Shown: positions 60,586-62,904 of the stretch, one piece after another
How positions within the stretch are numbered: the first letter of the stretch is position 1
Layout of the letters: the number at the start of each line of letters is the position of its first letter
NCBI RefSeq assembly: GCF_018446385.1
Contig: NC_056001.1
Coordinates: forward strand, 7,955,600-8,019,599
DNA length: 64,000 bases
Direction: 5' to 3'
From: Zingiber officinale
Taxonomy: Eukaryota > Streptophyta > Magnoliopsida > Zingiberales > Zingiberaceae
Made by a program: the position numbers and the translations under genes
Notes under the pieces: model-generated
Told to the model about the DNA's origin: nothing
Seen by the model: the letters and a program-made list of their open reading frames with translations, nothing else
Database searches by the model: none

Positions 60586-62904
60586 GTGATGAGGGACCTT
60601 CAAGTAGTAGGAGGTATCAAGAAGCTCAACAACAAAAACTACAACACGTGGGCAACATGCATGGAGTCTTACCTACAAGGTCAAGATCTTTGGGAGGTTG
60701 TTGGTGGTAGTAAAGCTACGCAGCCGGCAGAAGACGCCAATGACATTTTGCGAAAATGGAAGATTAAGGCAGGTAAAACAATGTTTGTCTTAAAGATCAC
60801 AATTGAAGAAGAAATGTTGGAGCACATCCGAGATGCCAAAACACCAAAGGAAGTGTGGGATATCTTTGCTACACTTTTTTCAAAGAAGAATGATACAAGA
60901 TTGCAACTTCTGGAGAAGGAGCTATTGTCAATAGCACAATGTGACAAGACGATTGCCCAATACTTCCACAAGGTGAAGTTGATATGTCGCGAAATTTCAG
61001 AGCTAGATCCATCAGCTCCTATTGGGGAAGCAAGGATAAAAAGAATAATTATTCATGGTTTGAGGCCAGAATATCGAGGATTTATTACTGCTATACAAGG
61101 ATGGCCAACACAGTCATCGCTTCTTGAATTTGAAAATTTACTTGCAGGTCAAGAAGCTATGGCTAAGCAAATGGGAGAAGTCTCGCTAAAGGGTGAGGAG
61201 GAAGCGCTCTACACCAATAAAAGTAAGGGTAGCTTCAAACGACATGCTGGTGATGGATCTAAAAAGAATGGCGACAAAGGAAAAAGCTATCATGGGAATG
61301 GAGGCTCTCGTCCAGGGGGAGCCTCGAAGAATTATGGTGATCGTAAAAGAATTTCTGGCGAGTGCTACAATTGTGGGAAGGTGGGCCACATGGCAAAAGA
61401 TTGTTGGTCCAAGAAAAGGTTCGTTCAAAGCAACACGGCTACTTCCAATTCTAAAGAGAATAGCAAAGATGATTGGGATGCTGAAGCTTTGATGGCCTAC
61501 GAAGATGACAAATCCGCGGTCCTCAGCGACGTCGAGGGCGACGATGATCCCCTCCCTATTGTCCTCCCTTCTTCCTCCGCCAGTTCTTCCTCGGCCTCGG
61601 AGCAGTGCATCCGCGACCTCCTCGCCGAGCTCGAGAAGGAACGTAGCGCCAGGAAGGCCGCCGAGGGCACCTTCAGCCGCCTCAAGTCCATGGCTCATGA
61701 CGCAATCCGTCAGCGCGATGATGCGCTCCGCGAAAGGGACGAGGCTATCAGGAGGCGCGACGAGGCCCTCCGCGAAAGGGACGAGGCATCGCGATCCGCC
61801 GAACGCACCGCAGCGAAGCTCGCCGATGCGATTCGACTCAGAGACGAGTCCATGAAGCACAAGGACTCGCTACAATCCGAGATGGAGACTGCCGCGCAGA
61901 TGCTCCTTTCCAGCATCGGCAAGATCTCCAGCAAGGTCAGCGGGTACAAGAACTTCTCCGCCTCCGGTGGTCTACCGACTTCCCAGAAGTACACCGGTCT
62001 TCCCTCCGTGACCTATGGCGTTATCAAGCGAGCGCATGAGATCTCCGAGGAGCTTATAAAGCAGATTGACGCCGCCTCGAAGGCTAGGGATCAGGCCAGG
62101 GAACAGGTTGAGCAACGGAATTACGAAATCACAATTGAAATTTCGCAGCTTGAGGCTGCAATTGTGACTCTTAAAGAAGAAGTTTCCAAGAAGAGCTCGG
62201 AGCTGCAAAACCTGGAGCATGTAGCCGCTGAGAGGGGGACACGGATCTCAGAGATCGAGAGTGAGATGTCCAGACTGACACAGCTAGTTAGTGTAATAAG
62301 TCGGTACATGCAAAATCCAATGAAGCCTCATTTGGAAGCAGTTCGACGAATACTAGGATATGTGAAGAGCACAATTGATTATGGTCTTGTGTATAAAAGA
62401 ATTGGAGACTGTAAGTTAGTTGGTTACTGTGATGCTGACTATGCAGGAGATCATGACACTAGAAGGTCAACAACTGGTTACTTATTTAAGCTTGGTTCTG
62501 GAGCAATTTCTTGGTGCAGCAAGAGACAACCAACTGTATCATTATCAAGCACTGAAGCTGAGTATCGAGCAGTAGCAATGGCAGCTCAAGAAAGCACATG
62601 GTTGATTCAACTATTAAATAACCTACATCAACCAGTTGATTATGCAGTTCCAATATATTGTGACAATCAATCGGCAAGTCGTTTGGCGGAAAATCCGATC
62701 TTTCATGCAAGAACTAAACATGTTGAAGTGCACTATCATTTTATCAGAGAAAAAGTTCTCCAAGAAGAAATTGAGATGAGACAAATCAGTACAGATGATC
62801 AAGTTGCAGATTTGTTCACAAAAGGCTTGAGCGCCAGCAAATTCAAAAGGTTTCGTGATCAACTCGGCATAGTACAAAGGGTTGGTGTTGAGGGGGAGTG
62901 TTAA
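60586..62904 (+). CDS. Chimeric Gag - captured coiled-coil protein - RNase H, 772 aa
   Basis: One uninterrupted ORF, with its TAA in the first bases of the 3' LTR. Residues 1-305 are copia Gag: UBN2-type body (NYNTWATCMESYL; LHKV-like YFHKVKLICREISEL) and a CCHC knuckle C260-C263-H268-C273. Residues about 307-565 (61504-62280) are unlike any retroelement protein. An acidic Ser-rich start (VLSDVEGDDDPLP) leads to a long coiled coil with RERDEA/RRRDEA repeats, a conserved-looking GGLPTSQKYTGLPSVTYGVI block, then more coiled coil. Residues 567-772 are the copia RT tail (RYMQNPMKPHLEAVRRILGY) and RNase H (YCDADYAG, SSTEAEY, YCDNQSA). Protease, integrase and RT catalytic regions are absent. The middle is GC-rich and intronless, the rest AT-rich. 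It resembles plant long coiled-coil (golgin/myosin-like annotated) proteins, but I cannot name the donor. Confidence 0.9.
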   Translation: MMRDLQVVGGIKKLNNKNYNTWATCMESYLQGQDLWEVVGGSKATQPAEDANDILRKWKIKAGKTMFVLKITIEEEMLEHIRDAKTPKEVWDIFATLFSKKNDTRLQLLEKELLSIAQCDKTIAQYFHKVKLICREISELDPSAPIGEARIKRIIIHGLRPEYRGFITAIQGWPTQSSLLEFENLLAGQEAMAKQMGEVSLKGEEEALYTNKSKGSFKRHAGDGSKKNGDKGKSYHGNGGSRPGGASKNYGDRKRISGECYNCGKVGHMAKDCWSKKRFVQSNTATSNSKENSKDDWDAEALMAYEDDKSAVLSDVEGDDDPLPIVLPSSSASSSSASEQCIRDLLAELEKERSARKAAEGTFSRLKSMAHDAIRQRDDALRERDEAIRRRDEALRERDEASRSAERTAAKLADAIRLRDESMKHKDSLQSEMETAAQMLLSSIGKISSKVSGYKNFSASGGLPTSQKYTGLPSVTYGVIKRAHEISEELIKQIDAASKARDQAREQVEQRNYEITIEISQLEAAIVTLKEEVSKKSSELQNLEHVAAERGTRISEIESEMSRLTQLVSVISRYMQNPMKPHLEAVRRILGYVKSTIDYGLVYKRIGDCKLVGYCDADYAGDHDTRRSTTGYLFKLGSGAISWCSKRQPTVSLSSTEAEYRAVAMAAQESTWLIQLLNNLHQPVDYAVPIYCDNQSASRLAENPIFHARTKHVEVHYHFIREKVLQEEIEMRQISTDDQVADLFTKGLSASKFKRFRDQLGIVQRVGVEGEC

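What the first reader, a model, noticed from the sequence alone, without database searches (positions are those of the whole stretch)
60586..62904. A young copia element carries a captured host coiled-coil gene segment as an in-frame Gag-host-RNase H fusion
The ORF switches sharply at about 61504 from AT-rich Gag to GC-rich coding DNA for a host-like coiled-coil protein, then back at about 62284 to the copia RT tail and RNase H, with the frame kept through both joints and no stop in 772 codons. About 3 kb of pol (protease, integrase, most RT) is replaced. The captured part appears to begin near the donor's own N-terminus (acidic VLSDVEGDDD start) and has no introns. Maize Bs1, which carries a host H+-ATPase segment, is the known precedent. 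With LTRs about 1% apart, this could be a mobile chimeric gene, possibly making a Gag particle displaying or packaging a coiled-coil protein.
Basis: partly seen in the sequence, partly recalled or inferred. Interest (0 to 1): 0.92.

Follow-up and report, generated by a model that had tools for sequence, protein, structure and literature searches.

The report
Jumping element carrying stolen coiled-coil gene
A plant jumping gene copied the front part of a host protein gene into its own coat-protein gene and spread it, and a sister element did the same with another rod-shaped protein, so this can show how mobile elements make new fusion genes.

Summary
The window has a non-autonomous copia element with one open frame: Gag, a host coiled coil, then the RNase H tail. 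The genome is inferred to be ginger. The donor gene lies on contigs C12 and C11 (97.5% and 96.7% identical), and the captured part starts at its start codon.

The one-step story is wrong. The fullest capture, 948 nt with 5-nt shared sequence at both joints, survives in a tandem pair on C10. The window's 3' joint is a later 273-nt loss with GT..AG ends; a second class lost 432 nt from the same GT. Both look like spliced RNA copied back into DNA.

At least 14 copies at 13 sites carry the fusion, all on one member of five assumed chromosome pairs. Only 2 of 14 frames are open, and a context-matched test shows no purifying selection.

Unexpectedly, the same copia family made a second Gag fusion, with the N-terminus of a filament-like plant protein, also coiled coil. 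Two donor introns are absent, and 6 of 6 copies found are open and very young. Gene capture by LTR elements is known; two mobile Gag-coiled-coil fusions in one family are the new part.

The parts
60036..60040 (+). Target-site duplication, left copy (GAGGG)
   Evidence: the empty site on C15 carries GAGGG once
60041..60463 (+). 5' LTR (TG...CA)
60466..60477 (+). Primer binding site TGGTATCAGAGC (initiator Met tRNA type; type recalled)
   Evidence: sequence
60589..62904 (+). Fused open frame Gag-host-RNase H, 771 codons and stop
60589..61491 (+). Copia Gag with zinc knuckle
   Evidence: PF14223, PF13961, PF00098; 129 gag matches listed in the genome
61492..61496 (+). 5' joint: ATGGC shared by parent element and donor start codon
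61492..62287 (+). Captured host segment, donor residues 1-265 of a long coiled-coil protein (796 nt)
62285..62290 (+). Secondary 3' joint TAG/TTA, where a GT..AG interval of 273 nt is missing relative to the C10 copies
62288..62904 (+). Copia RT tail and RNase H
62890..62898 (+). Polypurine tract GAGGGGGAG
   Evidence: sequence
62899..63322 (+). 3' LTR
63323..63327 (+). Target-site duplication, right copy (GAGGA, one mismatch)

Best explanation
A non-autonomous ('satellite') copia family formed in three steps. (1) Shown by sequence: 948 nt of a host long coiled-coil gene, from its start codon, took the place of part of pol behind Gag of a copia element, in frame at both ends, each joint lying in 5 nt shared by donor and parent. 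Inferred: reverse transcriptase switched templates between co-packaged element RNA and host RNA. (2) Shown: two derivative classes each lack one GT..AG interval (273 or 432 nt) sharing the same GT in the host part. Inferred: the chimeric RNA was spliced at a cryptic host 5' splice site to two copia acceptors, and the spliced RNAs were reverse transcribed and integrated. (3) Shown: 13 insertions, most with target-site duplications, and no complete pol seen in any copy. Inferred: they were moved in trans by relatives with long pol frames in the same genome. The fused protein is probably a tolerated passenger, not a selected product.
For: Donor alleles on C12 (97.5%) and C11 (96.7%), paralogue pair on C13/C14 (85%). 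Joint sequences of 14 copies, parent and donor. 14 places with the 5' joint among 40 scored of 131 candidates, 2 with the fuller 3' joint among 40 scored of 136. Splice-like ends: TAG^GTGAGG is one of 7 joint-best of 111 GT sites in L025a, and GTGAGT is the single best of 115 in L025b; the acceptors are 2 of 4 TGCAG sites downstream; a random deletion reads as GT..AG in 0.5% of trials. 8 of 12 insertions with both ends read have perfect 5-bp duplications and the window has 4 of 5, with its empty site on C15. Relatives have 1369-aa frames. The second capture lacks two donor introns, showing that this family can capture from spliced RNA.
Against: For the window's own capture the donor stretch is intron-free, so DNA-level capture is not excluded. 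No RNA data were available, so splicing and template switching are inferred. Two nucleotides (AG) are shared at the splice-like joints. Classes B and C intermix in weakly supported trees, and shared bases do not give a simple order: at two host codons where most copies share a change, the fuller C10 copies keep the donor codon at one only, while class B copy L032 keeps it at both. So trimming recurred or copies recombined.
Confidence: 0.7

Rival explanations
1. The Gag-coiled-coil fusion is selected. Host coiled coils give a hybrid Gag a benefit (assembly, transport, or competition with the autonomous element), so such fusions recur and stay in frame.
For: Two independent fusions in one copia family, both to N-terminal coiled coils that include the donor's Met; both in frame at both ends; second fusion open in 6 of 6 copies found; both derived classes of the first also keep the frame at the joint. 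Substitutions shared by copies lean slightly synonymous (12 of 25, expected 9.1, P 0.12).
Against: Only 2 of 14 copies of the first fusion are open; all substitutions in its host part match neutral expectation (43 synonymous of 116, expected 45.6). The second is too young to test. It was met while reading copies with long open frames first, so its being open and in frame is partly ascertainment.
Confidence: 0.18
2. Capture 1 happened at DNA level (break repair or deletion joining an element inserted near the donor gene), not by template switching.
For: The captured 948 nt are contiguous in donor genomic DNA; 5-nt shared sequence at joints also fits end joining.
Against: Host sequence sits between element parts on both sides, needing two joins; capture 2 in the same family lacks two introns.
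Confidence: 0.15
3. The window's 3' joint and that of class B are ordinary microhomology deletions, not splicing.
For: 2-nt AG shared at both joints; 8% of possible 3' ends follow AG.
Against: Two losses share the same 5' end to the base, both end after TATGCAG, and both read as GT..AG.
Confidence: 0.08
4. The element is a domesticated host gene or an assembly chimera.
For: Long open frame of 771 codons.
Against: 14 dispersed copies, LTRs, target-site duplications, empty allelic site, mostly broken frames.
Confidence: 0.02

Closest known systems
Maize Bs1 LTR element with captured H+-ATPase and other host segments (PMC13317346 sections 4 and 9 read; original papers not read)
   Same: LTR element with host coding segments inside; a chimeric gene of host and element parts
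   Different: Here one donor per element was found, with 14 copies in several structural classes, donor alleles and a fuller form still present, and a second independent capture in the same family
Gene fragments in maize, rice and sorghum LTR elements (PMC2774510 and PMC3726574, passages read)
   Same: 425 maize elements from at least 189 captures; 672 rice and 1,343 sorghum captured genes, so capture itself is common
   Different: The passages seen do not describe paired in-frame Gag-coiled-coil fusions or post-capture splicing classes
Spliced subgenomic Ty1/copia RNA, shGAG of EVADE (PMC8892269, passages read)
   Same: Copia RNA is spliced in plants, making a Gag-coding form
   Different: Here splice-like losses are fixed in the DNA of derivative copies, with the 5' site supplied by host sequence
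Retroviral oncogene transduction (recalled)
   Same: Host mRNA fused behind Gag, 5' by read-through and splicing, 3' by template switch; fits the second (filament-like protein) capture
   Different: Plant copia element, structural coiled-coil genes
Complex LTR insertions sharing an LTR (PMC1950507, listing only)
   Same: The C10 tandem pair L025 shares a middle LTR and has one outer ATCTG duplication
   Different: Here both units carry the capture

Membership tests
Ty1/copia LTR retrotransposon | LTRs TG..CA, PBS, PPT and 5-bp target-site duplication | tested here: met
   (window duplication 4 of 5)
Ty1/copia LTR retrotransposon | Copia-type Gag with zinc knuckle | tested here: met
Ty1/copia LTR retrotransposon | Protease, integrase and RT present (autonomous) | tested here: not met
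   only RT tail and RNase H remain; a non-autonomous derivative
LTR element with captured host gene (Bs1 kind) | Identified host donor outside LTR elements | tested here: met
LTR element with captured host gene (Bs1 kind) | Same junction mobilised to new sites | tested here: met
LTR element with captured host gene (Bs1 kind) | Chimeric transcript or protein | not testable with these tools
   no RNA or proteome data
RNA-mediated capture | Donor introns absent from captured part | tested here: inconclusive
   window capture is within one exon; the sister capture lacks two donor introns
Selected chimeric gene | Fewer amino-acid changes or stops than neutral expectation | tested here: not met
   43 synonymous, 69 amino-acid and 4 stop changes against 45.6, 66.4 and 4.0 expected

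The most novel reading that the evidence does not exclude
A copia lineage repeatedly builds hybrid Gag proteins by grafting N-terminal host coiled coils onto its Gag. These make satellite elements whose hybrid Gag co-assembles with, or hijacks, the particles of autonomous relatives. The element's own spliceability trims pol away while keeping the frame.
Probability: 0.17. Interest if true: 0.85.

Novelty: new variant of a known kind. Interest (0 to 1): 0.62.

Why it matters
It records the stages of gene capture in one genome: donor alleles, parent elements, the fuller joints, splice-like trimmed descendants, and an empty site. A second young capture with intact frames gives a live case to ask whether Gag-host fusions are made as protein and whether they help the element.

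Tried and rejected
Searches for relatives of the captured part in viral contigs and bacterial/archaeal genomes found none, and of Gag in viral contigs none. Pfam and PDB gave no convincing family for the captured part, nor Pfam for the donor exon. Naive dN/dS of the host part against the C12 donor ranges from 0.16 to 2.14 over 14 copies; the ratio of mean values among copies is 0.40 for the host part and 0.67 for Gag. I rejected this as evidence of selection because the context-matched test gives neutral expectation. A group of copies with 917-919-aa frames was suspected as a third capture; these are internal deletions from RT to near the 3' LTR. Of 58 other gag copies read past Gag (chosen from the 129, mostly long frames first), 50 continue as normal protease, 5 carry the second capture, L078 and L100 depart into sequence I did not identify, and L094 has a small deletion.

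Full report
What is there. The window holds a short copia-type element: LTRs 60041-60463 and 62899-63322, TG..CA ends, PBS TGGTATCAGAGC, PPT GAGGGGGAG, flanks GAGGG and GAGGA. One frame runs from 60589 to 62904: Gag, a GC-rich middle, then RT tail and RNase H. GC3 is 0.40, 0.71 and 0.28 across the three parts. The middle has strong heptad-range periodicity of hydrophobic residues (0 of 1000 shuffles reach it; Gag 254 of 1000; the RNase H tail 29 of 1000), and no convincing Pfam or PDB relative.

Host. The assembly has 3,090,333,446 bases in 211 contigs. This matches the haplotype-resolved ginger assembly of 3.1 Gb and 11 pairs (PMC8342452, listing and passages). The species is therefore an inference.

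Donor. Protein search of the assembly gave 23 matches, some of them pieces of one place (145 of 326 candidates scored). Two have no trace of the element in 9.5 kb: C12 (L029, 97.5% over 796 nt) and C11 (L039, 96.7%); they align to each other as alleles. A paralogue pair lies on C13/C14 (85%). The donor's first coding exon has an open frame of about 430 codons, beginning MAYEDDKSAVLSDVEGDDD on C12 and MADEDD on C11; the elements have MAYEDD. At 12 sites where C11 and C12 differ, most copies agree with C12 at 7 and with C11 at 5; at all 5 of the latter the paralogue also has the C11 letter. So the source was near, or ancestral to, the C12 allele.

Joints. Parent elements read GAAGCTTTGATGGCTACGG, the donor CTCGCCATGGCCTACGAAG, the element GAAGCTTTGATGGCCTACGAAG: the switch is inside ATGGC, at the donor's start codon. 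In the tandem copies on C10 (L025a, b) the host part runs 948 nt to GATTCTATG and is followed by copia RT GAATCAAATTTC; donor and parent share CTATG there. Reading the sequence, both joints keep frame, though L025a has a stop inside the host part. That 3' joint was found only in these two copies (40 scored of 136 candidates), and the 5' joint in 14 places (40 scored of 131; one match covers 178 of 200 nt).

Later trimming. Class C (window, L027, L028, L031, L033, L037) reads CACAGCTAG/TTAGTG. Class B (L024, L026, L030, L032, and probably L034, which carries a nested insertion and has an RNase H match starting at the class B position) reads CACAGCTAG/GAGA. In the C10 copies these places read CACAGCTAG^GTGAGG (GTGAGT in L025b), TTTCTTATGCAG^TTAGTG and GACTATGCAG^GAGATC. 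In L025a the intervals are 273 and 432 nt, both multiples of three and AT-rich (0.66, 0.65), with CTGAT or CTGAC starting 18 and 12 nt before the interval ends. In L025b the second interval is 436 nt. Random deletions in this region read as GT..AG in 0.5% of trials; given the 5' end, 0.5% of 3' ends follow TGCAG and 8% follow AG. I read this as splicing followed by reverse transcription. The C10 form must be older in structure, since it holds 152 nt more of the donor. Base by base the order is less simple: at host codon 169 L025a, L025b and L032 keep the donor codon, and at codon 221 L032 and L034 do. Repeated trimming or recombination among copies would explain this. L038 departs: its host part stops at 450 nt and copia integrase follows (domain read by eye).

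Copies and age. 14 copies at 13 sites lie on C10, C14, C16, C18 and C22 only, each the shorter of its assumed pair (lengths; pairing inferred). 8 of 12 insertions with both ends read have perfect 5-bp duplications; the window has 4 of 5; L024, L028 and L037 have none (where the last letter printed belongs to the flank). Trimmed LTR pairs differ by 1 to 16 substitutions, 0.09-1.5 million years at a recalled rate of 1.3e-8; the two C10 values share the middle LTR. The window's empty site is on C15, 96% identical over all 253 nt, with GAGGG once, so this insertion is present on one of the two assembled chromosomes.

Coding state. A continuous Gag-host-RNase H frame remains in 2 of 14 copies. Against a context-matched neutral expectation neither host part (43 synonymous of 116; expected 45.6) nor Gag (39 of 153; expected 38.0) shows constraint; substitutions shared by copies lean slightly synonymous in the host part (12 of 25; expected 9.1; P 0.12). 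Trees are weak.

Second capture. Reading past Gag in other copies showed another fusion: Gag, part of protease, then MDNKQWLWKRKS..., a filament-like plant protein (PF05911, E 7.6e-20). Six copies were found, identical over 102 aa, with open frames of 768-788 aa, LTRs with 0-2 substitutions in about 420, and perfect 5-bp duplications in 6 of 6. The donor on C3/C4 has two introns in this stretch that are exactly absent from the copies read. Its 5' joint is element CTCAAG/AATCATGG, where the parent continues GTTACC and the C3 donor has TTGTCAG just before AATCATGG. This fits splicing from the element into a host exon, though the site CAAG^GTTACC is only moderate (6 of 9) and the host exon start is predicted. 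The 3' joint shares AAT and is the same in 5 of 5 other copies, allowing one base change.

Reading. Both fusions join N-terminal coiled coils, from or just before Met1, to the same Gag. Chance and ascertainment can explain this; long frames were looked at first. I therefore hold neutral, trans-mobilised satellites as most likely and selection as an open rival.

Literature. Gene capture by plant LTR elements is well known (PMC13317346 sections 4 and 9 read; PMC2774510 and PMC3726574 passages). Searches listed no title or abstract opening on a Gag-coiled-coil capture; only the held library was searched and only top listings were seen.

Noticed in passing
C2:137890672, C2:183904945, C12:143281708, C13:50850847, C15:3856572, C20:37596800 (L050, L051, L053, L054, L058, L063, L064): Second, younger Gag fusion in the same copia family, carrying the N-terminus of a filament-like plant protein with two donor introns removed; 6 of 6 frames open.
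   Followed up: yes
Places, e.g. C5:9384309-9384646, C6:90896210-90896547, C11:33347618-33347954: Dozens of dispersed filament-like protein fragments (54-72% identity) in two pieces split by about 80 nt, as if a repeat family carries a piece of this gene with its intron.
   Followed up: no
L025 (C10:86628500-86638499): Two captured elements in tandem sharing a middle LTR, with one ATCTG duplication outside; the only copies found with the fuller capture.
   Followed up: partly
L119-L124 (C11, C6, C2, C9, C18, C1): Non-autonomous copies with an internal deletion from RT to near the 3' LTR; five of six share one joint, L122 has another nearby.
   Followed up: partly
C10, C14, C16, C18, C22: All 13 insertion sites found for the first fusion lie on one member of each of five assumed chromosome pairs, as if it amplified in one parent of a hybrid; the empty partner site was tested for the window only.
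   Followed up: partly
L038 (C22:6141000-6150500): Copy whose host part stops at 450 nt and continues into copia integrase, probably a recombinant with another element.
   Followed up: partly
L020/L022/L040 (C9:91141229-91141969): More distant, stop-ridden relative of the donor gene (43-59% identity).
   Followed up: no
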